NCBI RefSeq assembly: GCF_019649055.1
Contig: NW_026570225.1
Span: 992,001-1,056,000 of the forward strand
DNA length: 64,000 bases
Direction: 5' to 3'
Source of the DNA: Paramacrobiotus metropolitanus
Lineage: Eukaryota > Tardigrada > Eutardigrada > Parachela > Macrobiotidae
Shown here: positions 26,743-47,476 of the stretch, piece by piece
How the letters are laid out: each line of letters opens with the position of its first letter
Numbering within the stretch: position 1 is the first letter of the stretch
The notes under the pieces: generated by a model
What the model was told of the DNA's origin: nothing
Seen by the model: the letters and a program-made list of their open reading frames with translations, nothing else
Database searches by the model: none
Translations under genes and position numbers: made by a program

Positions 26743-27846
26743 TCTTTCAGACAATTTTGCAAGTTTCACAATAATGGTCCTGTAATTAAGGTGCATTATC
26801 CTGCGGTACGTACCAACAGTAATCCTTCTCTGCTTAGTGAGCAGCAATACATGATAAATAATACGATAAAGAAAACAGAATAAATAAAATGTTTATGCCG
26901 TTCGGTTTTCTGTTAAAAACTTTCATTAGTACCGCGAGGTGGTACAAAAATTATCATCCGCAATAGCGCGTTTAAAAGCGTACAAAGAATAAGAATGCTC
27001 TATTAGAATGTCAAATGTCTGGGAAGTACTCCCGAAAGAAAGCAATAAAAGCTCTCATCGTAACCTTGATTAAACAAAACACTGCTCCATCGTTTATATT
27101 CTTTAGTAGCTATTTTATATTGAATAAAATGCATATCTGTTATTATAAGCATCAAATACTTGTACAGTTGTACAGTATTTGTGTATGCAAGAAATTTTTT
27201 TGATCCTAAAAATGTAAGGAGTTCTAGCAGTTTACATTAGACGTGTACTGGGATACAATTTGTACGGTATGATGTTGTACTGAACTGTACAGCATACGTT
27301 AGAATTGGAATAAAGGTGCTGATTGCTTTAACAACGAAGTGTGCATTTGAAATGTTAAGTTTAGTGGTGCCGTACTACAAAAAGATTGGTATAACAATTA
27401 TCTCGTCCAATATCCATCAAGAAGGTAAATAAATCTAACCGGGAAATATAGTTCAATTATGCTCGACACAATCGAACAGAGATTGCATGTTCCAAAGTTT
27501 ACCCCAAGACACGCTACTCGAACGATATTATGAGCAAACCTTAGAATCTTCCGGTATGCTAGCGATAATGAATAACAGCGCTAACGACTTCGGCGCTCAG
27601 TAAATTATTATGCATATAGATTGCTGGAAAAACTTCTTTTGTAACTGAAAGAGTAAGTATTTTCACCATACTCAAGGAGATATTAGAAAATAATTAAATT
27701 CACTGTACTTGTTTCCGTATTTGATCTTTATATAAACAGCCAACCGCAAGGGCGATTAGTGGATTATAGGAACACAGCAATCCAAAATCCTTGTTACAGT
27801 TACCTGTTGTTTATAAAGCTGCACAGCACTGCTTACGACATTAAAA

Positions 27847-30816
27847 ATGGAATTTGACGACATTTTGCTCGACGTTGGTGATTATGGCCGCTACCAGTTG
27901 TTCATCTTGTGCGGTTTTATCCTGCCAGTTTGTCTTTTTGCCGGGATACATTCTTTCATACAGGTACGAAAACTGTACTACTGCAACCTGAACAGTAAGC
28001 AGTACAGCAAAGAATCGGACGTAAAGATCATAATATTATTTAATTTACCATCTAAAATGTTATACATAGCATTGTGCCGCACGTGTAAAGTTAATTTTGG
28101 TTTGGCCTACGTGCATAATTATTTAAGTTCTTCAAAATGCAGCTCGATACAAATGTTTGGAAGATCGAGTCAGGAAAAGCTTAAGTGCTCGGGGAAATCT
28201 TATGGTTAGAACACTTCTAAAGCAGGCTTCACGTTACGTATTGTATACATATTAGAGTGCATACATAATCCTTTTTGTAGTAGAATAATATTACATGTGA
28301 CGCGGAATTTTAGTAAGCGGTAGTACTAAATTAAATGGCCGACGTACATATTTCTATCCAATAGCCTGTAATGCAACGTGTCTGTGAGAAGCGAAAATTT
28401 TAGGCGATAATATTAATAAATAACAACTGATTGTGAGTTAATCAAGCGCATCGCACTTACTAGCTCTTCCAATCCGTGACCCCCAAGAGTTTCCGGTGTC
28501 ACATTCCCGAACTCGAACATTTCAACGCCACAATGCAGCTAATTGGTATTCCACGGTCCGTCAAACAATTTTTTTATGAAAGCGAAAGCCCAGTCTATCA
28601 GTATGACCAGTGCACTATGTTCACCGCCAACTACACTGCCCTGCACGGCATTCTGCATAACTCCCCAAACAGTTCCGCCACCAATGTTACACAGTCTCCC
28701 ATTGCTCCCTGTCAAAGCGGATGGATCTACCAGAATGTTCAAATTCACAGTGTTGTGACGGAATTCGATTTGGTGTGTTCACGTGACTGGTTGGTCACTT
28801 TGGCTTTGGTCTGCTTTACGCTGGGCAGTGTGTGTGGGTTGCTCGTTTTTGGCTTGGTGTCGGATTATTTTGGCCGGAAGATTACGATTTTCATGATTCT
28901 AGGTAACCTCACTAATTTCCTTTTTAAAGCTAGCGTACTTAAATATTTATATAGTCTACAAGTATACGAGACATCAGCACATAGGCGTAAATTACAAAAG
29001 GATTATTCGTACCAAAATCAAAGATCCTCTCTAATTGTAAACCAGAGATGTTGTGCTGTACAGTATTTGGTTGATACGATATAATTTATGTATCTATATA
29101 ATGGCCTATTGTCCTATATTAATTCTTGCATGCGTATGTTCGTACAACCATACAGATAAGATATTATTTTGTGGAAGCAGTTCTGTTGTAGTGATTAGAT
29201 TTCCTATAATTATGAAGCGCTTTTGACGCAGTAAATGATATTGCGAGGATATTGAGTAACGAGGCGATCACGTCACAACAGTACGTCCGCCGAAGTTGTT
29301 GACCTTAGATGAAGAACTGTTTCGTTTTTCAGCACTGCAGGCCATATTCGGACTATTGTCATCCTTCGCTCCCAACTTCGCTGCATGGTGTACGTGCCGG
29401 TTTTTCATTGGTTTGACGGTTCCCTCATCTTTGCGCATTCCCATGATCTACGCCATCGAACTGGTGCGACCGGAGAAACGTACCCGTGTCGGCATTCTCT
29501 CCACTGCTTCGTACGCCGTCGGAACGATTATGTTGGCCGGTCTGGCCTACATTTTGCCCGAATGGCGTCGCCTCTCGTTGGCTACTTCGTTGCCCGAGCT
29601 GGTGCTTCTATTAGCCTGGTTCTTCATCCCGGAATCACCGCGCTGGCTGCTGGCCAAACATCGCAGTGTGGAAATCAAAGACTTCCTGCGCTTTACGGCC
29701 CAAGTTAATGGGAAGATTTTAGGTTCTAACACTTTAAACAAGCTAGACTTGATTCTGGACCACGAAGCTGCTTCATCGAATGCAGCAAAGACCAGTCCCA
29801 CTTTCTTTGACTTGTTTCGACTGCCGAATCTTCGCAAGAAGACTTTCCTGATTACATTCATTTGGTTCAGTAATATTTCCGTCTACATGGGATTAAGCTA
29901 CTATTCGCCGACGCTGGGTGGCTCATCACTCTTCTTGAGTTATCTTTTGTCCATGGTGATGGAAATCCCAGCGTACGGCATTGTGTGGTTTGTCACCGAG
30001 AAGCTCGGCAGGCGCCTGCCGTTGTGTGTGGCTATGATTTGTGGCGGGGTGCTCTGTGTGATTACCGTGGCCCTGCCCGAGAAGAATCCCGACGCCATTC
30101 TGGTCATGTACCTCCTGGGGAAGTTCTGCATTTCAGCGTCATTTTTTGTGATTTGCGTTTATGCCGGTGAATTGTATCCGACAGTTGTTCGCGGTATCGG
30201 TAAGTACAGATGACAAATGTTTCCGTATTTAAATATCAGGGTTTCATACGTGGGTGATATAAGTTACAGAAGTGTATGAATTACAAATCAAATAATTGTT
30301 CACTCACACACAACTGCAACCGTCACACAGCGTTTTTCAGGTCTTGCCACCAGCGCCACGTTCGCCACCCTGGGCGTTTGTCTGGGCCCGGTTATTATTC
30401 ACATAGGCAAAGATTATATGACCCTTCCTCTGGTGATCTTTGGCATATTTGCCATTTTGGGAGGATTCGCTCCGCTCTTTTTGCCGGAAACCTGGCATCA
30501 AAAGCTGCCGGAAACTCTAGCTGAAGGCGAAGAATTTGGCAGTGAAGCGGTGTGTTTCAATCTGTTCAAATTGAAAACATACGAGAGCACGAAGCATCAG
30601 CCCATCCCAGGCATGATCGGCGCATCCGAAACCAAGGAGAAGAGTAGTTCGCTGGTAACTCATTCGCTGGAGAAAGATGATGCGGACGACGAACTGGCAT
30701 TTGAGCGCAAGGCTCACCTGCGTTCCTTTCCGTCGATACCGCAGAAGAAGGCGGCAGTGCGTCTGAACAGTGCCACTTATCTGATGTCGAAACAGGATCG
30801 TGCAGCTCTGTCTTGA
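27847..30816 (+). CDS. SLC22-family organic ion transporter, paralogue 1
   Basis: Plasma-membrane major-facilitator transporter for organic cations, anions or carnitine; the substrate cannot be told. Four exons (27847-27963, 28464-28902, 29333-30199, 30341-30816) give 632 aa. The start MEFDDILLDVGDYGRYQ is the classic SLC22 N-terminus, followed by TM1. A large extracellular loop contains several Asn-X-Ser/Thr sites and Cys residues, then TEFDLVCSRDW. The MFS motif SDYFGRK lies near residue 172. PESPRWLLAK lies near residue 285. Further TM segments run to GELYPTVVRGIG and a long hydrophilic cytoplasmic tail of about 110 residues. Exon 1 has the same length and phase as that of its tandem paralogue downstream. 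Introns 2 and 3 have no counterpart there. Confidence 0.93.
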
Positions 30817-31799: not shown

Positions 31800-31978
31800 G
31801 CCCCTTACACATGTAAAGCTATTGGTGTTGTTAACTAGACCCTTACCGGTTAACTCGATATCTGGTTGATTTTATTGGTCAAATCAAAATGCAATACACA
31901 AATTATTAGAAAAGACACGCAAACTACAACATAAAAATTTCGTTTAGTTTGTCCAGCCCTTCCATCGCGCCTAGCACT

Positions 31979-32162
31979 TATAACGGGCAACGGAACCGGC
32001 TGATACTGCTCGAAATATTGCTAACCCAACGACTGAAGAAACCGCAGGAAATACATCGTATATATACTAAACCGCTCGTACAGGAACAGGAAATACAAGA
32101 GGCGGGACAACCAAGCACATACTCGTACATACTAATACATGAGACAGGAATCCCCCGTTACA
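31979..32162 (-). repeat. 3' LTR of the gag-only element
   Basis: 184 bp, identical by eye to 36612-36795. Preceded on the minus strand by the polypurine tract at 32163-32172. Confidence 0.93.
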
Positions 32163-32172
32163 CTCCCCTCTT

Positions 32173-35046
32173 ACCAAACTGAAAACAGAATGTTTTCAGG
32201 GAAAACCAATCAAAAACATATACAAAAGAAATGCAAAGCGTGCAAAAACATTAGAGAAATCACTATCAGATTTTTTTTTGGGAGTACAAAACGTAGATTT
32301 AGTTCGAAAACATTAGTATTAAAATAATAGGTAAATAGGGCAAATATGATCCGTAGCGTTCCACGTGAGACGATAGTTGCTGTATCCGTCCGGTTCCACG
32401 TACGACATAAGTTGTTGCATCCGTCCGGTAAAGTCAGTCCGTCCAACGCTGAAGATTGACCACGTTATCCACATAGATTTGCGACATCCGGTTTCGTATT
32501 GGTCTTGGGAAAGGAAGTGTAAAATCGATGTCCACGACGTGAGTACACCAGTAGAAAATCATTACAAACTTCTGGTTCTGAAAAACTCGAACACACATTG
32601 ACGCAACCCTACTTATATTTACAAATGTTTTGTAATTTTCAATTAACGCGCTAATTTAATTTAACGATTCAGTTGTTGAAAATTGCCGCAAATACAAATC
32701 AAAATTATTCCAGAAACGCCACCTTCAAAATAAACCTTGCGAAAATCTTTCGGTCAATGAAGTATATAACATTGTATGGCGTAATATTGCGACAATGACG
32801 CATGAAGGGAGAATGAATGGAGCGAGATAAGAAGACAATGCGGATAAGATGGGGAGAGACAAAGGCACTAGAGCAATACTGCGTAAAGCGAGTGCATTAC
32901 AATGGGGTGAATTTGAGTGATGAGTGGCAAGACAGAGTTATGAGGATCAGCAGTGGAGACAGGATGATAGGGGCAAGAGAGAACCTGTGCTCTCTGTTTG
33001 CATGAAATGATGCGACGGGAAGGTATGAATACCTCAGAACTGGTGAGGCGTGAACAAGAGAAAAGATAGAGCGGGGAGAGAATCGGGCCAAAGTTACTTT
33101 CCTAATAAAATCGAGAGGTGCTTCATCGGGCCAAATGGAAAATGAATATCCAGCGAATGCAATGATCTTCCCTGTTCTGGCTATACAGAATTGCTGAGAA
33201 TAGTACGACCGGCTAAAAAAGATAATCGACTGGCAAAACCAAGATTAAAAAAAGGAAAATAGGTGACAAGATGTGACACATGTTTGGCTGCTAATAAAAT
33301 TATAATAAGAAATAACAAAAGAGTGGCAAGAAATAACAAAAGATGCATACTGTTAATATTACGGAAGTGGCAGTACTATCTGTTAAGATTCTGTTCTTGA
33401 ATTATTGAAAAGATGTACTTACGCCTTTACACTATGACATATAAATTAACGAAACAAGTACAAAAGATTAAATCACGTCGAGAAATGTACTGTCGTAATC
33501 TGCTGCTTTACAAAAAAATTATTCGCTAACCAGAGTTAAGTCCAAACCAATATCAGCAAAACAACATCTGACAATGCATAACTTCAGAACAAATACTTTT
33601 TTATGCCCGAACTATGGAAGGGACGCCCATCTTTCCAATACCGCGATATGCGCACGAAATATACAATTTTTTTTTAAAAACAAATTTCGCGTTTTAATAT
33701 AAACAAAATACTTACCGTCAGAAGCACTGTGCAGCAGTGATGATGGTAGACTACCAATAGGCGAGCTCGGTTGCGTAATCAAAATCCCAACAGCTGTTTA
33801 CTGTTCTGAATGATGCGATCGTTTGTTTTTCGAGTCACACGACTTGCTGACATGTTACGCATTTAATTATTAGGATCTCGAGGGCTTTATTACTGTAATC
33901 AGACCAACAGGGACCGTTTATAGGCGCACCTGGATGACAACACAATTACAATAGAAACAGAGGGCACGGACAAGGGCAGGCGTTTATAGCCGTGGCCCGT
34001 CTATATGATCGAAAAAATAGATTACGACGCAACAAAACAAGGATGGGCGTTTATAGCACGCACCCGTATATGAGCGAATATAAATAGATTTGCTCGTGCA
34101 AAAGCCCTTTTCCATAAATTTTCAGTGATCTTCTTAATTTCGTAGATCTACTTTAATTTCATTTTGCGTAATTAGCGTAATTCGGTTTAACACAAATACT
34201 TACTTGAGCTGCCGTGGTACACAGTGGTGATCAAGCTGCGTCTTCTGTTCGGCGGAATTATTATTCAAATTAATGCGCGCATTACTGTTACCATAAACTT
34301 TGCACAACCTTAAAACTGAACCAATCAATTTTTCTCTTTGCAGTCGAAGCAAACATTCATAATTGTCTGTTACCAAAATCAATGCGCATATTGCAGTACT
34401 ACCACATAACCGCACCAGTTAATGGGAATTTCGAATAATAGTTCATGTTTTTGTGCCAAGCATGCCGTCATGTGTTGTGAACGCTGACATTTAGATTTAG
34501 GATCTTATTTTCGTGGAATGCGATAAGTTGGAATTTATTCTTAACTTTAAATGATGGTACATCTGGTTTTAGTGATTTTATTGAAAATTTTATAATTTAA
34601 GTTGACATTAACGATCTCTGGCTGCCCAAAAGGAGACGACAACATCTGGCGTTTTAAGTCATTAGCCGAACCAGCGGCGGAAAATTAATGATAGATAAGA
34701 TTTAAGCGGTGCTGCGCATATGCAATAACAATTTAAATATATCCCAAAATTCATTTCTGCACATTACATTGAGATAAACCATTACCGTTACCATCGCGAG
34801 GCTTTTCACATCTGGCCATCATCAAACAAATATTCAGCGAATCAGCGCTGTCAACCTCAAAAATTTTCTCACTTATCTGCCCTTTTCTCAATAACAATAA
34901 ATACTGCTGCAGCCTTCAAAATCAACGGGCAGGCATCATTAATAACTCAGTACAATAATATAATATTAACAAAATTTTCAAAGAGCACTTTAGTTTACAA
35001 AACCGAAACAAATTTTCACGTACGAACGACAATTAGACCAGAAAAG
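32173..35046 (-). other. Non-coding internal region of the gag-only LTR element
   Basis: About 2.9 kb downstream of gag with no long frame. Includes a purine-rich stretch at about 32800-33090 and degenerate repeats of a GCGTTTATAG-containing unit at about 33900-34090. A filler or packaging role is possible but unproven. Confidence 0.6.
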
Positions 35047-36261
35047 TTAAATCTGCCATCTCGAATACGCCGGTTGTGCACTACCGGTGACCTGAGATTT
35101 TGCAGACCTAAACTGCTGCGCCTGAGATGGTAATTTACCGGGTGTGTTAAAAGTCAGTTGCTGCGTTGTTGGTGGATGCTGTGCTGCACCGAATGACATC
35201 GGATAACGATCTTCAGAATCTTGTTCTGCCTGTGCATACTGTGCCTGCGTAGAGTGGCCAGCTCCAAACGGGCAAGCATACGAAAGATGATCATAGTTAC
35301 CGCAATTAAAGCATCCATTGTCTTGGCTTGGCGCATCTGTGAGTCGAAGGGTTGACTGGTTCGCATTACCCGTTAAGTAATTCTGAGAAAGATCGTAACT
35401 GCCCTGTGATTCGTTATTCTCCTGTAAACACTTTATTTGTTCAGCAAGATGCTTTAGTCTTTCATCCAAACCTTTCATCAGGTTATGAGCGACAATCTCT
35501 ATCTGATTAGAGCTAGGCGCTGTCGGTTGGCTGTATAGCGACGAGAGATTTGACTGATCTGTAACATTATTGGACGCCTGGTATGACGAATTTTGATTCT
35601 GCATCGCGAGCTTGTATTGTTGCTTAACGGACACATCACGTAAACGATTGAAAAAATCGGCTACGGTTCTGGGGCTGTTAGTCACGAATGCCGGTTTAAA
35701 TTCAAGGGCCAAGGCTTCGAAGAGACGAACTGTTTTTTCTGCTTCGGTAGCTGCGGGATTAGTGGCTTCCACGTAATCAAGGACACGATGGACAAAAGTA
35801 CGAGGATCTGTAAATGCTAGTGTACGGCAACCTTCATTCATGAGATCGAGTTCAAAATGGGTTTTTCCAAAAGCTGTTAAAAAATGGGATCGAAGGTCTG
35901 GCCATGTGATACCTGCTGGTTCTGCGGTATACCAGCGAAGAGCGTTGTTCCTCAAACAGACCGCAAAATGTTGAATTCTGTTAGCTGGTGTAAAATTATT
36001 AGCAACTGCCATCGTCTCAAACTGTGTTAAAAAGTCCTGGGCGTCTTCGTAAGAAAAACCACCAAATTTCGGCAAATCACCCAATTCGAGAGATGTTATA
36101 CGGGTAACTGCAGCGGCATTCTGGTTATTCAAAAAATTCAATAAATTCTGATGTGCAGTAGCGTTATTCTGTAGGCTTTGCTGTAAAGCTGCATTCTGCT
36201 GAGCGGAAGCGGCATTAACGGTGTTAAGCATATTCTGCAGTGCTTGCGGGTCTATAGCCAT
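35047..36261 (-). CDS. Retrotransposon gag polyprotein
   Basis: Intact 404-aa ORF from ATG at 36261. A Gln/Asn/Ala-rich N-terminus is followed by a retrotransposon-gag (capsid-like) domain at about residues 60-210, with typical features such as DAQDFLTQFETMA and LRNNALRWY and a Trp-Pro-Asp-Leu-Arg segment. A single CCHC zinc knuckle (CX2CX4HX4C) lies at about residues 318-331, followed by a Gln-rich tail. No protease motif (DTG/DSG) follows. This is a nucleic-acid-packaging structural protein of Ty3/gypsy type; an intact frame and identical LTRs imply recent activity. Confidence 0.9.
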   Translation of the reverse strand: MAIDPQALQNMLNTVNAASAQQNAALQQSLQNNATAHQNLLNFLNNQNAAAVTRITSLELGDLPKFGGFSYEDAQDFLTQFETMAVANNFTPANRIQHFAVCLRNNALRWYTAEPAGITWPDLRSHFLTAFGKTHFELDLMNEGCRTLAFTDPRTFVHRVLDYVEATNPAATEAEKTVRLFEALALEFKPAFVTNSPRTVADFFNRLRDVSVKQQYKLAMQNQNSSYQASNNVTDQSNLSSLYSQPTAPSSNQIEIVAHNLMKGLDERLKHLAEQIKCLQENNESQGSYDLSQNYLTGNANQSTLRLTDAPSQDNGCFNCGNYDHLSYACPFGAGHSTQAQYAQAEQDSEDRYPMSFGAAQHPPTTQQLTFNTPGKLPSQAQQFRSAKSQVTGSAQPAYSRWQI

Positions 36262-36462
36262 GATATTGACTTGCTGGTAATTAGTACTTATTAATTATTG
36301 CAAACAGCCTGCCAACTGCGGAAAGTTGACTATACGATCGTTAATTAAATTTTCTTGAAAAATGGCGCGTTAATACCGAATTCGAAAATAGTATTAGGAT
36401 CGGTAACAGTTAAGATTGTTCTTTTTGGGCAAAAAATTGGACGTGATACATAAGGACTTACC

Positions 36463-36562
36463 TGTTGAAACAGGGAGGCGGAGGGGTAGCGGTGGTAAAG
36501 GCTAAAGGGCACTGTTCAACAGGGAGGCGGAGGGGTAGCGGTGGTAAAAGTTAAAGGGCACT
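36463..36562 (-). repeat. Tandem repeat in the gag-element leader
   Basis: Two copies of a ~50-bp unit containing ACAGGGAGGCGGAGGGGTAG, located between the primer site and gag. Next to the distal copy the minus strand reads CAG|GTAAGTCC (about 36454-36464), a strong splice-donor match, so the leader may be spliced. Confidence 0.75.
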
Positions 36563-36611
36563 GAAACTATCGACTTGAAAAAAATTTTCGTTCTCGGTAT
36601 GCGACTCCAAG

Positions 36612-36795
36612 TATAACGGGCAACGGAACCGGCTGATACTGCTCGAAATATTGCTAACCCAACGACTGAAGAAACCGCAGGAAATACATCGTATATATAC
36701 TAAACCGCTCGTACAGGAACAGGAAATACAAGAGGCGGGACAACCAAGCACATACTCGTACATACTAATACATGAGACAGGAATCCCCCGTTACA
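36612..36795 (-). repeat. 5' LTR of the gag-only element
   Basis: 184 bp, identical by eye to 31979-32162. Target duplication CACT follows at 36796-36799. Confidence 0.93.
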
Positions 36796-36799
36796 CACT

Positions 36800-37973
36800 G
36801 ACGCCACATTTGACATTTCCCCGTTGAATTTCTATAGACAAGCGCTCTCGTAGAAATTCATGCGAACGTAGTTCTCCGGTGTGTTGTTGCAATCTTCTTC
36901 CCAGTTCTTTAACGAGATATTGTCCGACAATGAATCACTGCGTACAGCATACAGTATGTGTACCTGTGTACGAAGTTAGTGAAGTTACTCAACCAATAAC
37001 CATCGTACCAACCATTTATTTTATGCAAACCTGAAAAGCGATAACTTTTCAGATTTATTAAATTAAGTTGTTCGAATAATAGCAGCTTTAGTCGATTCAG
37101 CTAACAGTAAGTGGACACTGGAACTTAAGAAAATAATAATTAATCAATGTATATAGCTGTACATGTATAAGATCTTATATCTGTATATCATTGTTTTGTA
37201 CAATAGTTAATTTGAGCAATGATCAACTGCAATAGTACTCACAATTATTTATCGGACAATTTAAATTATTGGTTTATGAATGATGCTGGCGAATAGCGTG
37301 CACATCTGAAGAAAAACGAACCACCAATATATGCAGCGATCTATTTGTAACGTGGGGTATATAGATAAAGCGTTTGACCCTGGCAGGAATTACTTAATAA
37401 ATATGCTGATTACAAGCGGAGTGATAAAAAGAATAATGGCTTTCGCACTGTTTCGGGCCAGAAATATATGTTTTATACAGAACGATTGTGCGCTATATCT
37501 GTACTAGCACAGACCAGTAATCTGTAATCTGGCGTCAGCTGGATCAGCAATTATCGTTCAGAACGCGCTGTAGAGCATGCCGCCGCACATGTGCTCAACC
37601 ACCAGGTCCAACAACATCATGGCAGTGGACTATCTCACAAACAGATGAGCCAGCAGAAGGTTCTCTTGATAGAGCCAAACCTACTTATAACCTTACAGCT
37701 AAGTATTTCTAGTAGGCGATATTAATTTACGGACTGATTAGCGTTCTGAAACTTGTTTACAATCGACACCAGTCCGTATCTGTTTGTGTGGTAAAAATAC
37801 CGCGATACGTGTTGGTTGGTTGGAACACTAACAATAACAAGTAATACGACCGAAAATATTGATTCAAGTGTTGCGTTAAATATAGCTTATCCGAGCGGTG
37901 TATTTTTTGCCCTGCATGTTTATACTGATTTGTATTGCCCGCGGACTATCGACACATCCCCTTTCGAGAGGGG
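36800..37973. other. Upstream region of SLC22 paralogue 2
   Basis: No coding region recognised; presumed promoter and 5' UTR of the second transporter gene. Confidence 0.4.
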
Positions 37974-40455
37974 ATGGATTTTGATGTAATCCTGAAGGAT
38001 ATTGGAGAATTCGGTCGTTATCAAAAATTGTTGTTTGTTTTTGTAATACTGCCGGCCTGTTTACCAGGAGGATTTCACGGTTTCTCCCAGGTGCAGTGCT
38101 TACTAATTCTTTTCCGCAAGGGCTTATTACTGTGCGCGGAGAGAATAGTGAATAAAATATACCGTATAATAACATCGCAGTATACTGTAATTGTAATGTA
38201 ATAATTATAATTAAAGATTCGTAGCAGTTTTGCTGGAGTAAATCATGTTGAATTCTTCTAATCAAGGATCGCTTGTAAAGTAGAATCTATTGTTTCTTAT
38301 TTAAATTTCAAATTTAGTTTGCCTAGGGAAACTGTAAAGTAACAGGGTTAGTCTTCGATTAACTCGAATTCCACATTAAAAATTGCAAATTACTGCAGAT
38401 GTACTTAATTGTCGGCGAACACCGGGCCGCTAAACTATAGATACCCTAGTATGCATAATGTGTACAACAGTTTTATTAGTTGTTTACACACTGTAATTAA
38501 TTTGTTAGTCTATGATATTTTCCCGTGCTTCCACTTGTAGAGCAACTTGGGACCGGAGATATAAAACTTCAAACATGATCTTTATGAATGCTGAGTGAAT
38601 GTGATCGATAAGTTTTAATCTAGGTCAACTGGGAATAAAATTAGTTTAACCGGTGTCTACTGTAGCCAACCAGCGGAAGTTATATATAGAAGTACGACAC
38701 TTGGCGCTGGAAAGGATTCCAGTTCTGAGCTGATATAAATAATACATATATCATGTGCAGAACTCTTTTTAAGCAGAACATTTGGCAAGAAAAATTTTAT
38801 ATTTATTGACTTATTTTTTGCAATTGACTTATTTTTTATAGCTATTTTCCGTTGGGACTCCAGAAAACTACTCCTGCCACATCCCGATAAATAACACCTT
38901 GTACAACTTTTCAATCTTCTACCAGCAGTCTTTCATCCCTCCACTGGACAATGGCGAACCGAGCAAGTGCGACATGTACGACGTGGACTACAGCAATGCC
39001 ACCCAGCTGTATACTTTTCAGCCAAACCATACGCGCACGATAGCGTGCCAGTATGGGTGGGATTATGATACGTCGGTGTACAAGAAGACCGCGGCGACAG
39101 AATGGAATTTGGTTTGTGCGAGGGACTTCTTCCCCACGCTGTCCATCGAGATCCACACTCTGGGGACACTATTCGGATCATTACTGTTCGGGTATCTGGG
39201 TGACCGACTCGGCCGGAAGAAAGCCTTCTACATTGCCGCTATGCTACAGCTTATCAGCGGTCTGGTGACCATTGCAGCGCCAAATTTTATCGTCTTCTGT
39301 TGTATCCGTTTCGTTAATGGCATAACTATTGTACCGGTGTGGATTCTGCCGTTAATCATGGGATTGGAACTGATCGGGCCGACGAAGCGCGCTCCCGTCG
39401 GCGTGACCATGTCTGTATTCTACACTCTCGGGGTGGTTGGCTTAGCGACAGTGGCGTTTTTTATACGCGACTGGATACCACTGCAACTGACGGTGACATT
39501 ACCGTTTTCGATTTTTGTGTTCTGGTGGTGGCTCTTGCCGGAGTCGCCGCGATGGTTGATGTCGCAGGGGCGTTTCGATGAGATGATGGTCATTGTGCGG
39601 AAGATTGCCAAGGTGAACGGTGTGGTTCTGATGGAGAAACAGATCGATAAATGGCAAGACCGGTGTCGAGTAGCGTACGAAGAAGAGCAAGCACAGAGGC
39701 GGTATAATCTGCTGGATCTTTTCCGAACACCAAACCTGCGGATGAAAACTATTCTAGTGGTCTTTAATTCGTTTAGTAATTACGCTGTGTACAATGGATT
39801 AAATTTCTTTGTCCCGCATCTGGGTGACGAACATGTGAGTTTCTTGCTGAGTGCCTTGGTCGAATTACCTTCCTACCTGATTTTATACCTGACCCTCAAC
39901 CGTTTTGGCCGCCGTGTGATTTTAATGTCCACCATGGTGACCGGTGGCATATTCAGTATTATTGCTGCGACAATGATGACCACGGCCAATCAGATCGTCC
40001 TAGTTATCTTTTTCTTAATGTCCAAATTTTGTATTACATGTTCGTTTTTCGTGACGGACTTGGTGGCCTCCGAATTGTTTCCGACAGTTGTCCGCGGTGC
40101 CGGTGCATCGCTTACGCAGACGGTGTCGGCGGTGGGATTGTGTATCAGTCCGATTATCTCCCATTTAGCGAAACATTACATTTTCGTGCCATTGATTATT
40201 TTTGGCGTGTTAGCCATTGTTGGAGGTGGAACAACTTTGATCCTTCCCGAGACGGCTAACACAATGTTGCCCGAGACATTGGAAGAGGGTGAAGCGTTCG
40301 GCAAGAACATGACGTGGAAAGAACGACTGCGCTTTCTTCCTCAAAAGACACAGTCGACGGTGGTGCACAGGTCACCCAGCCTTTCTGAGGCGAGAGTGCT
40401 GCTCAATGGCAATCATTTGGTTCCTGTGGATGATAAGGCAATGCCTATCCAGTGA
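37974..40455 (+). CDS. SLC22-family organic ion transporter, paralogue 2
   Basis: Two exons (37974-38090 and 38842-40455) give 576 aa. The N-terminus MDFDVILKDIGEFGRYQ parallels paralogue 1 residue by residue, and exon 1 is the same 39 codons in the same phase. A glycosylatable Cys-containing extracellular loop precedes ATEWNLVCARDF. The MFS motif GDRLGRK lies near residue 159, PESPRWLMSQGR near 272, and ASELFPTVVRGAG near the C-terminal third. About 12 TM segments are visible. The cytoplasmic tail is shorter than in paralogue 1. The second exon is uninterrupted where paralogue 1 has two introns. AATAAA near 40634 may be its polyadenylation signal. Substrate not predictable. Confidence 0.93.
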
Positions 40456-43419: not shown

Positions 43420-43894
43420 TGTAACAGCAGCCGGTTTGACTGCTGTTCTAGTGGGTTGGTTAATCCACCTTACCACGATCTGTCGGCTGTTAGTGTGGGA
43501 AAGGCTGGCACGGTCGGCAGCGATGCTGACCGGAAGCTGACTACCGTTTACATGGTGGCAATGATGGGAGATGCACGATCATCCCATGGCGATTACGCAA
43601 CACAACACAAGGTCATCGCATGAGTTTATTAGCAAGTACACAAAGCAAGATTCGGCGAGCAACGCAAGCTGAGGAGCAAGACGCATAAGCGTTGAGCAAG
43701 AAGCGCGGAAGGCGCGTTAGCAAGATTCGGAGCAAGCTGCAGCAAGACTAATTTCAAGATGTTTCTGACCGTGAGATGCGGTCGGTGAAAGTAGGAAAAC
43801 TAGGATTCTGATCCTCATAACACAACAACCAATAAACGGTAGAGAAATGCAATTAACACTCCTACTGGCGGTACATCTAATTTCTATCGCTACA
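43420..43894 (-). repeat. 3' LTR of the second LTR element
   Basis: 475 bp; identical by eye to 47002-47476. Internal GCAAGATTCGG and GAGCAAG repeats are visible. Confidence 0.93.
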
Positions 43895-44159
43895 TCCCTC
43901 ACGGTAGCGATGAGATATACTTGTCTCATCAAGATAATATTAGGGAGTGTTAATTAAAAAATAGTAAAAAATTGAAATTAATTTAGAAAAGTTTAAGAAG
44001 TTAGCTGTAGGAGTCCAGTAATGGTCCTGAAGTAAACGTGGCGGATCCGTTGGTGTTGGGTTAATCTTCCACGGAAATCGCTAATGTTAGGCGATCGGGA
44101 TTCTGCGATCGATGTGAGCGGTGGTAGGTTGGTGTGGTACTGGATGGGAAATGTGTCCC

Positions 44160-45200
44160 TCACGGTATCCGAAAATTTTCCGCTTGTATCCGGTGGCATG
44201 GTGTAGCACGGAAATGGCGCAGTAATGATGACATGGGTGCATTTGCAGTTTTAATTTTATGCACATTTGGGATTGTGACGAAATCATAGCCGTTTTGTGG
44301 TGTACCGGCTTTCTCCGTTTTAATGTTTTCCATTGTACAACTGGTTAAATCGCATGCCGGTTGCGGTCTGTAGGGATCATTTACCGGCGATTCAGAATCG
44401 GAAGGTGAGATGCATGAATCAGAGGAAATGCAGCTGGATGGCGTTAGCACTTCAGGTCTTATTGTATTCAGCGGTGATAACGATGCTTTCGAATTAACTT
44501 TTCGCAACGTCGGCTGGTCGCGGCGAGACGGCGAAGCGGTCACGGTGGCATCCATTGTGTCCACTGTAGACTTTATGATGGAAAGTAGCGGCGGGTTGTT
44601 CCTGGTGCCGGCGAGCGGTGTAGGGCTTAATGTTTCCAAAGGTTCTGGTGTTGACGTAGTGGGCTGATACTGTGAGTCATTGTTGTAACTTGGACTCGCA
44701 CTGGAAGAGTGACGGCGATCAGTTTTAATGTACGGTGTCCGAGGAATTAGCGGTTCGGACACATTGAAATGCACAGTCGGCATCCGTACACGCTGGCCTA
44801 ATGTTCGTGTACTTCGTGGTGTAGTGGCATCCCGTTGAGGGTTATATAATTTAACTTCGGCTTCAGTGTAGCAGACAGGTGGAACGTAGTCACGTCCATA
44901 TGGACCTCCTTTTCCGTAACGTCTCATCCGTTTTCCTTGAGCGGTGAACCAAAAGTCGTCTCCATATTTCCAGAGCATGTAGGAGATGTAGTCGTCATAT
45001 GCAGTTTGTACTCTGGCTTTGACATGGTCCGGGCATATGCGTTGAATACTGTATTTATCGTCGTAGTCGGCTTCTGTGCATTCTCGATATGAATGCAGGA
45101 AATCTTTGCATTTCGGGCAAAATAGCTTTCCATTCTTCAGTCTGTAGCTGTCGAAGTCGATATGTCGAGGATGGATTCTTCGGTAATTTTGGGAACACAC
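44160..45200 (-). CDS. Gag-like ORF 3 of the second LTR element
   Basis: 346-aa open frame in the same frame as ORF 1 but separated from it by the shifted ORF 2. Near its start are Cys pairs (FCPKCKDFLHSYREC) that could complete a zinc site with Cys residues coded at the end of ORF 2. The rest is Ser/Thr/Pro-rich. Not a standard CCHC knuckle. Whether it is translated alone, by frameshifting, or after splicing is unknown. Confidence 0.55.
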   Translation of the reverse strand: MCSQNYRRIHPRHIDFDSYRLKNGKLFCPKCKDFLHSYRECTEADYDDKYSIQRICPDHVKARVQTAYDDYISYMLWKYGDDFWFTAQGKRMRRYGKGGPYGRDYVPPVCYTEAEVKLYNPQRDATTPRSTRTLGQRVRMPTVHFNVSEPLIPRTPYIKTDRRHSSSASPSYNNDSQYQPTTSTPEPLETLSPTPLAGTRNNPPLLSIIKSTVDTMDATVTASPSRRDQPTLRKVNSKASLSPLNTIRPEVLTPSSCISSDSCISPSDSESPVNDPYRPQPACDLTSCTMENIKTEKAGTPQNGYDFVTIPNVHKIKTANAPMSSLLRHFRATPCHRIQAENFRIP

Positions 45201-45475
45201 ACAGAACAGTTCCTTTGCTTTGGAGTGTGGTGCTCGTATCGATAGTCGTCGGCGTCGCGGTAACGGTCAAAACCACGTTCCATTGTAATATTTTGCTGGT
45301 CAGGTGCATAGTGGCGTTGTGCACGTACTGACCGATGACTAGTGTAGTCGTAGTCATCATCCCGTTGGTTAGCCGTTATAATCTCAACCGGGTCTGGTGG
45401 TAAACGAGATTGTTCTTTATGCTCAAACTTGTCTAATCTTATGAGCATCAATCGTATTTTGTGAACAGTGTTCAA
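45137..45475 (-). CDS. Gag-like ORF 2 of the second LTR element
   Basis: 112-aa frame overlapping ORF 1 by 53 bp and ORF 3 by 64 bp. Charged, Arg/Asp/Tyr-rich (RDDDYDYTSHRSVRAQRHY), with CSVC near its end next to a TG-repeat run where a slip would change frame into ORF 3. Confidence 0.5.
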   Translation of the reverse strand: MNTVHKIRLMLIRLDKFEHKEQSRLPPDPVEIITANQRDDDYDYTSHRSVRAQRHYAPDQQNITMERGFDRYRDADDYRYEHHTPKQRNCSVCVPKITEESILDISTSTATD

Positions 45476-46463
45476 AGTTCAAACCGATCATAAATTTTCG
45501 GTGTTTTAATTTGTAGTCGAATGCACGGTGTATTTCTTCGACTTTTTGTGCTTCCGGCATATCAGGATTAATTTCATAAAATAATTTCTCCATTTCATTA
45601 AAGAAATCATTAATATCGGTACCGTCTGTGTACTTTTTGCAACGCAGCACTTTTAATTTGGTTGCTTTATAATCTTCCAGTTCATTTAATGTAGGTTCTG
45701 ATGGAACAGCTGATAATATGCGTGCACTGCGCACATTTAATTTACCGGCGTTAATTTTACTCGTACTCGTATTATCAATATGGGCGCGGTGTGTATGCGC
45801 AGATAATTTCGCTTCCGTTGATGCGCATGCAGTGCTATCTGTGCGTGCTTCTGTGGTGGGCTGCTTAAGCCACTGCATAAAGTTGGCTGCGTGCTGGGCA
45901 GCGGATAGCTGTGCAATGACTGAGTTGTCGTCAATCTGCTGAATGCTAGATACAGCAGCACGGCGGATCTGCATAAGCACTGCGTTATCCAGAAAGTAGT
46001 TTTTTTCTTCCGTTAGCGAACGACTTAGATTTTGGTACTTCTCTCTATACAGCTCAGGTTCACAGGGAAGAGACTGTAAGATGCTACGCTGCACTAGCCA
46101 TTCAGTGGTCTGTTCTGTCTCGCTCACTGTGCTGGAAACGGGGGAACTTGCAGGCACGGGTTGTGGCTGTGTACTGTCTGTGCCTGTGACTACGGCTGTC
46201 TGACTGCCCACGGGAAGAGTGTGCAAGGAAATCTCTCGGTGTGCCTGCTTTGGGTCATCTGTTGTTGCTTGTAACAGATGCTGCTGCACACTTGACAATG
46301 GAATATTATTTGCCGATATGTATGCAGATAATTTTTCCACAAAATGCTGTTTCTTCTTCGCTTTGTTAATGTTTAGACTGAATTGTTCGCTAAGCCAGCG
46401 CAGCTCTGACTTTGACGAACAGTTCAGAAGAGACAGGAGAAGAATCTTCTCTGAAGATTCCAT
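45423..46463 (-). CDS. Gag-like ORF 1 of the second LTR element
   Basis: 346-aa frame from ATG at 46463. The N-terminus looks like a SAP-type or helical segment (LLSLLNCSSKSELRWLSEQF), followed by a Gln/Thr/Ser-rich linker and a C-terminal capsid-like stretch (DINDFFNEMEKLFYEI). Placement just after the primer site and leader supports a gag role. Family unclear. Confidence 0.6.
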   Translation of the reverse strand: MESSEKILLLSLLNCSSKSELRWLSEQFSLNINKAKKKQHFVEKLSAYISANNIPLSSVQQHLLQATTDDPKQAHREISLHTLPVGSQTAVVTGTDSTQPQPVPASSPVSSTVSETEQTTEWLVQRSILQSLPCEPELYREKYQNLSRSLTEEKNYFLDNAVLMQIRRAAVSSIQQIDDNSVIAQLSAAQHAANFMQWLKQPTTEARTDSTACASTEAKLSAHTHRAHIDNTSTSKINAGKLNVRSARILSAVPSEPTLNELEDYKATKLKVLRCKKYTDGTDINDFFNEMEKLFYEINPDMPEAQKVEEIHRAFDYKLKHRKFMIGLNFEHCSQNTIDAHKIRQV

Positions 46464-47001
46464 GGATCTGCTGGAGCGGAACGCTTAATGCTTTCCCATG
46501 GAGAAAAGATCTGTCTGTGCTCTTACAGTCTCATCGGATGCGGGAACACAATGGCATTCAATAATTTTGCTACAGTATGTACTGTATATATGTACTGTAG
46601 ACAAAGGACAGGGTGTGGCAAAATTATCGGCAATGCCAAAATAATATGATTTCCAACAATTTTTTAAGAGCCAAACAGTTACAGTAATCAATCTATTCGC
46701 AATTTTAATTTAGTAAATAATTTCGCTAATGTACTTTCGAAATTTTATGTTAATATTTTTGCACAAAAGCCACTCAGAAAGTTATGTACGATTATGCAAA
46801 AAACAGCGGCAAAATGGGAATTATGCAATTCAAATGTCTAATTTGGCCAGAATTATACACTAAAATCGAAAATTCGCAATAGTGCTCACTGCTACCGATG
46901 ATTACAAAAAGTAACAACTCACTGAACGACAACTGGCAAAATGATGGCGTCGGTCGGCTTCCTGGTATCCTGTCGGGTTGGTTCGGAAACCAGGAGCGCC
47001 A

Positions 47002-47476
47002 TGTAACAGCAGCCGGTTTGACTGCTGTTCTAGTGGGTTGGTTAATCCACCTTACCACGATCTGTCGGCTGTTAGTGTGGGAAAGGCTGGCACGGTCGGC
47101 AGCGATGCTGACCGGAAGCTGACTACCGTTTACATGGTGGCAATGATGGGAGATGCACGATCATCCCATGGCGATTACGCAACACAACACAAGGTCATCG
47201 CATGAGTTTATTAGCAAGTACACAAAGCAAGATTCGGCGAGCAACGCAAGCTGAGGAGCAAGACGCATAAGCGTTGAGCAAGAAGCGCGGAAGGCGCGTT
47301 AGCAAGATTCGGAGCAAGCTGCAGCAAGACTAATTTCAAGATGTTTCTGACCGTGAGATGCGGTCGGTGAAAGTAGGAAAACTAGGATTCTGATCCTCAT
47401 AACACAACAACCAATAAACGGTAGAGAAATGCAATTAACACTCCTACTGGCGGTACATCTAATTTCTATCGCTACA
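47002..47476 (-). repeat. 5' LTR of the second LTR element
   Basis: 475 bp; identical by eye to 43420-43894. Flanked by duplicated ATAC at 47477-47480. Confidence 0.93.

What the first reader, a model, noticed from the sequence alone, without database searches (positions are those of the whole stretch)
31979..36795. Complete, apparently fresh LTR element that encodes only gag
Seen: two 184-bp LTRs with no difference by eye, a 4-bp duplication CACT, polypurine tract, primer-site candidate, and one intact 404-aa gag with CAPSID-like region and CCHC knuckle. The other 2.9 kb has no pol frame. Identical LTRs mean recent insertion, so the element was probably mobilised in trans by a relative with pol. 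This is the architecture called TR-GAG in plants; an animal example with an intact gag would be notable.
Basis: partly seen in the sequence, partly recalled or inferred. Interest (0 to 1): 0.8.

Follow-up and report, generated by a model that had tools for sequence, protein, structure and literature searches.

The report
Gag-only mobile element family
A jumping gene in this probably animal genome has lost its copying enzymes but kept a capsid gene that evolution still protects, has spread as a family, and most likely borrows the missing enzymes from a rare envelope-carrying relative.

Summary
Window 31979-36795 is a complete minus-strand LTR element: identical 184-bp LTRs, 4-bp duplication, tRNA-Gln-like primer site, polypurine tract, one intact 404-aa gag, no pol.

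It is not a lone deletion. Fourteen elements with both LTRs share the plan (17 places carry this gag); no pol or env was found in them. Only two close pol-bearing relatives were listed. One (C2, 9.6 kb) has identical LTRs, open pol and env-like frames, a split gag, and the same primer site, polypurine tract and LTR tips. The gag-only 3' half is collinear with C2's post-env region, so pol and env were deleted long ago. Five of 14 copies later gained a second piece of C2-like sequence, which suggests co-packaging.

Gag stayed selected without pol: changes shared among copies have N/S 0.77 (neutral 2.65), singletons 1.78. The capsid half is 80% identical to the autonomous one although synonymous sites are near saturation; the nucleocapsid half has lost its basic charge in 17 of 17 copies.

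Best reading: a TR-GAG-like family mobilised in trans. The plan is known from plants, with animal parallels. The env-bearing helper and the decharged Gag tail are new details. Mobilisation itself is inferred.

The parts
31975..31978 (.). target-site duplication CACT, left copy
   Evidence: related empty sites
31979..32162 (-). 3' LTR, 184 bp
32163..32172 (-). polypurine tract, sense AAGAGGGGAG, same in C2
32163..35046 (-). non-coding interior; its 3' part is collinear with the post-env region of the C2 element; about 0.95 kb next to gag has no match there
33062..33138 (-). 77-bp stretch 88% identical to C2, upstream of C2 ORF4
35047..36261 (-). gag, 404 aa: capsid-like half (about residues 1-216) and a C half with one CCHC knuckle and net charge -3
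36469..36563 (-). two 46-nt direct repeats (96%) in the leader, function unknown
36591..36609 (-). primer-binding site, TGGAGTCGCATACCGAGAA, best fit tRNA-Gln(CTG)
36612..36795 (-). 5' LTR, 184 bp
36796..36799 (.). target-site duplication CACT, right copy

Best explanation
This is one recent copy of a multi-copy, non-autonomous Ty3/gypsy-type family. The founder was a deletion of pol and env from an env-bearing element like the one on contig C2. The RNA keeps the helper-type primer site, polypurine tract and LTR tips. It makes its own Gag, and copies with a working Gag spread better, which is why gag stayed selected. Inferred: Gag co-assembles with the helper's Gag and Gag-Pol through the conserved capsid half; protease, reverse transcriptase and integrase come from the helper; both RNAs can share a particle and recombine. 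Shown by sequence: absence of pol in the family, shared cis signals, collinear deletion, purifying selection on gag, later gain of helper-type sequence, recent insertion. Not shown: transcription, particles, mobilisation.
For: 14 of 14 elements with both LTRs lack pol, env and ORF4, while the pol probe finds pol in 5 of 5 control loci. 8 of 14 have 0 LTR differences and 13 of 14 an exact 4-bp duplication. The 17-nt primer-site core occurs exactly at 20 places, among them the gag-only copies, C2 and C78. C2 and C78 are the only listed pol genes above 60% identity. Non-coding blocks are collinear with C2. L018 and L022 carry an old and a newer match to the same C2 stretch. Shared changes in gag: 34 nonsynonymous, 44 synonymous, against a neutral N/S of 2.65; singletons 48 and 27.
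Against: 11 of 17 gag copies have frameshifts or early stops, three of them with identical LTRs, so Gag in cis is not strictly needed, unless these are assembly errors. The shared-versus-singleton contrast is p 0.010 for 14 copies but 0.07 for all 17 and 0.26 for the six best. C2's own gag is split and C78's pol is broken, so no fully open helper was seen. Gag-only and C2 LTRs are only 79% identical. No expression data.
Confidence: 0.82

Rival explanations
1. Simple internal deletion: this one copy of an otherwise autonomous family lost pol.
For: The interior is a deletion derivative of a C2-like element.
Against: All 14 elements with both LTRs lack pol, gag copies are 89-98% alike in DNA, and the LTRs form a group apart from C2's, at most 80% identical over full length.
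Confidence: 0.03
2. Pure parasite: mobilised by the helper's own Gag and Pol; gag is a passenger whose conservation dates from the autonomous past.
For: Many copies with broken gag have multiplied or inserted recently. Cattle D-type ERVK do this without functional genes (PMC10924933, passages).
Against: Changes that arose within the gag-only family and are shared among copies are strongly skewed to synonymous (p 2.5e-7 against a neutral N/S of 2.5), so constraint acted after pol was lost.
Confidence: 0.07
3. Interfering Gag: the gag-only protein enters helper particles through its capsid and lowers helper activity, as a self- or host-protective factor comparable to Ty1 p22 or Drt2.
For: Conserved capsid half with a decharged C half; few helper copies, two pol genes above 60% against 17 gag places. 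Gag-derived restriction exists in yeast (PMC4599808 and PMC10951436, abstracts).
Against: Selection is seen across dispersed, recently inserted copies that keep all replication signals, which fits selection among elements rather than one domesticated locus. p22 is a truncated Gag; this one is full length.
Confidence: 0.08

Closest known systems
TR-GAG elements of plants (for example AT5TE33540 of Arabidopsis; PMC8704663, passages)
   Same: Two LTRs, a single ORF for Gag, no pol, an autonomous relative in the same genome; mobilisation in trans was observed there
   Different: Not a plant host; helper carries an env-like gene; C half of Gag has lost its basic charge; selection on gag measured here; mobilisation not observed here
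Barley and wheat RLG_WHAM / RLG_Sabrina (PMC5738225, PMC9744471, passages)
   Same: Families that keep gag without RT and integrase; primer-site region and Gag are what they share best with the proposed helper
   Different: Very high copy numbers in plants; the wheat elements also keep protease; here about 17 gag copies and no protease found
Cattle ERVK[2-1-LTR] C-type/D-type pair (PMC10924933, passages)
   Same: Animal LTR pair of competent and defective elements that keep flanking parts; trans-complementation
   Different: D-type elements have no functional genes; here gag is open in some copies and selected
HAL1 (half-L1; PMC5753468, passage)
   Same: Animal non-autonomous element that encodes only the Gag-like ORF1p
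   Different: Non-LTR retrotransposon, another replication mechanism
CM-gag of Culex
   Same: By its title a repeated element containing only a gag gene, in an animal
   Different: Seen only as a title in the reference list of PMC3286476; whether it has LTRs was not seen

Membership tests
TR-GAG (definition from passages of PMC8704663 and otherwise recalled; the founding paper was not read) | Two LTRs with primer site and polypurine tract | tested here: met
TR-GAG (definition from passages of PMC8704663 and otherwise recalled; the founding paper was not read) | Single ORF, encoding Gag | tested here: met
   404 codons; Arc-capsid and nucleocapsid profile matches. 3 of 17 copies are open over the full length, 3 more end 25-28 residues early
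TR-GAG (definition from passages of PMC8704663 and otherwise recalled; the founding paper was not read) | No pol in the family | tested here: met
   0 of 14 elements with both LTRs; 0 of 3 further gag copies in the stretches fetched, one of which (L027) does not cover the whole element
TR-GAG (definition from passages of PMC8704663 and otherwise recalled; the founding paper was not read) | Mobilised by an autonomous partner | not testable with these tools
   Shared signals and mosaicism only
TR-GAG (definition from passages of PMC8704663 and otherwise recalled; the founding paper was not read) | Plant host, as in the papers listed under that name | tested here: not met
   10 of 10 papers listed have plant titles; here PAW and Mito_morph_reg domains point to an animal (their animal range is recalled). 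So: works like a TR-GAG, not filed as one by descent
Ty3/gypsy (Metaviridae) | Pol order protease, RT, RNase H, integrase | tested here: met
   In the C2 relative only; the window element has no pol
Ty3/gypsy (Metaviridae) | Short target-site duplication of 4-6 bp | tested here: met
   4 bp exact in 13 of 14, one mismatch in L015
Ty3/gypsy (Metaviridae) | TG...CA LTR ends | tested here: not met
   TG at the start but GTTATA at the end in gag-only copies and C2
TRIM / LARD | No coding capacity (recalled definition) | tested here: not met
   Open and selected gag

The most novel reading that the evidence does not exclude
A two-part mobile system in which the gag-only partner is a capsid donor: its Gag has kept a capsid that fits the helper's lattice but given up a basic nucleocapsid, so RNA packaging and enzymes come from the helper while the more numerous partner supplies shell. 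The youngest helper copy seen, whose own gag is split, would in turn depend on the partner's Gag. Such a division of Gag functions between two co-evolving elements would be new.
Probability: 0.25. Interest if true: 0.75.

Novelty: new variant of a known kind. Interest (0 to 1): 0.52.

Why it matters
Why non-autonomous LTR elements keep gag after losing pol is an open question. Here is a small family in which selection on gag can be measured during spread and seen to relax after insertion, together with a pol- and env-bearing relative that has matching signals. Gag appears divided into a conserved capsid half and a decharged nucleocapsid half, which separates assembly from RNA packaging and can be tested with isolated domains.

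Tried and rejected
Self-priming was considered and rejected by eye: the complement of the primer site does not occur in the LTR. A tRNA 3'-end pattern found nothing because it assumed a perfect match. tRNA-Trp has an 8-nt match in its anticodon arm, weaker than the 12 nt of tRNA-Gln. 36 of the 60 tRNA genes listed were examined (20, 16). Host identification failed: let-7 and Chitin_bind_4 rang nowhere, controls included, so they say nothing; the nematode SL1 sequence was not found with up to one mismatch. The env-like protein has no PDB match at E 0.1 or better. A gag tree of 17 rows had 2 of 14 inner branches well supported, in line with mosaicism. One LTR-only place (C85) looks like a solo LTR with a matching TTCG on both sides. 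In print, by listings only: TR-GAG gave 10 papers, all plant titles; (7, 1, 8 of 14,441, 1, and 15 of 62 papers listed) showed no title or abstract start on an animal LTR family that keeps only gag under selection. The library is open-access only, so this is weak; CM-gag (title only) may be a precedent. PMC12440569 was seen as abstract; PMC5408684, PMC4724089 and PMC5395297 as passages; none bears directly on the claim, except that PMC5408684 describes an animal (rotifer) non-autonomous family, TelKA2n, that lacks most of pol and keeps env.
Full report
What is there. The element occupies 31979-36795 and reads on the minus strand. The LTRs are 184 bp and identical, TGTAAC...GTTATA. CACT is duplicated. 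The joined flanks match repeats of about 225 bp elsewhere in the genome (40 matches listed, 202 candidates); three that I fetched read through AGCACTGACG at the junction without an insertion, with a 7-bp difference 8 nt away. The gag ORF has 404 codons. A profile of this gag with five relatives matches Arc capsid structures (E 3.4e-4 and 6.6e-4, positions 65-141) and, over the C half and knuckle, Splicing factor 1 (E 0.0018) and retroviral nucleocapsids (E 0.012 and worse).

Family. The LTR search lists 41 matches, the gag search 106, including distant families. Fourteen elements have two LTRs 4.1-4.9 kb apart. Their length is 4.3-5.0 kb; 13 of 14 have an exact 4-bp duplication; 8 have 0 LTR differences, the others 1, 2, 2, 3, 3 and 13. 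Three more gag copies (L025, L027, L031) are interrupted or lack a recognised second LTR in the fetched stretch. Pol, env and ORF4 of C2 are absent at E<1 from the 14 and at E<1e-3 from the fetched stretches of the other three (the L027 stretch does not reach the element's end). The same pol probe finds pol in 5 of 5 control loci, the weakest at E 5e-4.

Helper. On contig C2 a 9611-bp element has identical 183-bp LTRs and an AGTG duplication. It carries gag in two overlapping frames, a 1285-aa pol with protease, RT, RNase H and integrase domains, a 587-aa protein matching Monjiviricetes_fusion (E 5.3e-11), and a 263-aa ORF without a Pfam match. C78 holds a second one, pol 96% identical but with a stop and a frame change, gag open, and an insert between LTR and primer site. 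Among the 41 pol matches listed (36 of 2132 candidates scored), no other exceeds 60% identity. No other full-length LTR match exceeds 80% identity to C2's; a 57-nt fragment on C188 is 84%. Gag-only and C2 LTRs are 79% identical with identical tips; the leaders start with the same 21 nt and the polypurine region ends the same. The primer-site sequence is the same in 13 of 14 gag-only elements and C2, with one change in L023. It best fits tRNA-Gln(CTG): 12 nt exact and TCCA, with a short internal loop between.

Origin. Blocks in the gag-only non-coding half align in order with C2 7229-7315, 7462-7573, 8177-8290 and 9374-9611, not every block in every copy. So pol and env, about 5.4 kb of C2, were lost and ORF4 decayed. 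About 0.95 kb next to gag is unmatched. L018 and L022 hold both an old (62-67%) and a newer (82-83%) match to the same C2 stretch; L017, L020 and L021 hold 44-68 bp of the newer one. I read this as later template switching with a C2-type RNA. L013 and L015 share leader and gag (3 substitutions in 1574 columns) but not the interior (122 in 1570), a mosaic between gag-only copies; gene conversion is not excluded.

Selection. For the six copies with gag open (WIN, L012, L017) or ended 25-28 residues early (L013, L020, L021), dN/dS is 0.17-0.32 in 14 of 15 pairs and 0.59 in the closest pair, L017-L021. At two-state codons of 14 copies, shared changes are 34 nonsynonymous and 44 synonymous (N/S 0.77), singletons 48 and 27 (1.78). 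The neutral N/S from the non-coding substitution spectrum is 2.65; the other two frames give 4.46 and 2.77. Against a neutral 2.5 the shared class has p 2.5e-7, singletons p 0.10. Codons with more than two states or several changes (61 for 14 copies) were left out. Shared versus singleton differs at p 0.010 for 14 copies, 0.07 for 17, 0.26 for six; the contrast lies in the first 200 codons (p 0.005) and not in the rest (p 0.45). So gag was constrained while copies spread and is close to neutral after insertion. Against C78's gag, residues 1-216 are 80% identical (dN 0.12, dS about 1.8, near saturation), residues 217-404 31%. The C part has net charge 0 to -7 in 17 of 17 gag-only copies against +11 and +12 in C78 and C2.

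Mechanism. Conserved capsid and matching cis signals point to mixed particles in which helper enzymes copy and integrate gag-only RNA. The decharged C half suggests that RNA is packaged largely by the helper's Gag. These last steps are inference.

Results against. Eleven of 17 gag copies have frameshifts or early stops, three of them (L010, L015, L018) with identical LTRs. L013 and L015 show more indels (7) than substitutions (3) in leader and gag, so some indels may be assembly errors. No helper copy seen is open throughout. There are no expression data. Identical 184-bp LTRs allow up to 1.6% divergence at 95%.

Known relatives. TR-GAGs (PMC8704663, passages) and WHAM/Sabrina (PMC9744471, PMC5738225, passages) are nearest in plan; HAL1 (PMC5753468, passages), cattle D-type ERVK (PMC10924933, passages) and CM-gag (title in a reference list) are animal parallels. 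Ty1 p22 and Drt2 (PMC4599808, PMC10951436, abstracts) ground the interference rival. Env-like genes from mononega- or chuvirus-type viruses in LTR elements are known: PMC5408684 (passages) describes one of paramyxovirus origin in rotifers, and the listing shows chuvirus ones in insects. The host is probably an animal: PAW and Mito_morph_reg domains, whose animal range is recalled.

Noticed in passing
window 43420-47476, minus strand: A second LTR element without pol: 475-bp LTRs with no difference, ATAC on both sides, primer site TGGCGCTCCTGG fitting tRNA-Asn over 12 nt, two ORFs (353 and 368 aa; the second holds CPKCKDFLHSYREC, a CX2CX4HX4C motif), no Pfam match. Pol probes give nothing better than E 0.14. 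Possibly another gag-only family, its gag split over frames; copies in the genome were not counted.
   Followed up: partly
L009:2698-4458 (contig C2): A Ty3/gypsy-type element with an open env-like gene matching Monjiviricetes fusion glycoproteins (E 5.3e-11, above the Pfam cut-off); no PDB match.
   Followed up: partly
L009:675-1463 (contig C2): A 263-aa ORF downstream of env in the C2 element, with no Pfam match; 91% identical over 175 aa in C78.
   Followed up: no
window 33062-33138; C2:3086025-3086101; C78:259417-259499; C55:858708-858789: A non-coding stretch 80-88% identical between gag-only copies and three other places, better conserved than its surroundings; possibly a cis-acting RNA element or a trace of recombination.
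   Followed up: partly
window 31871-31978 and 36800-36915: The insertion lies in a repeat of about 225 bp with dozens of copies in the genome (40 matches listed, 202 candidates).
   Followed up: partly
L029:2183-3408 (contig C78): A 1.2-kb insert with 41-bp inverted ends (95%) between the 5' LTR and the primer site of the second pol-bearing element.
   Followed up: no
window 27817-30816 and 38842-40455: The element lies between two genes of the sugar/organic-cation transporter type; only the right-hand one was scanned (Sugar_tr, E 2e-29), the left-hand one was judged by eye.
   Followed up: no
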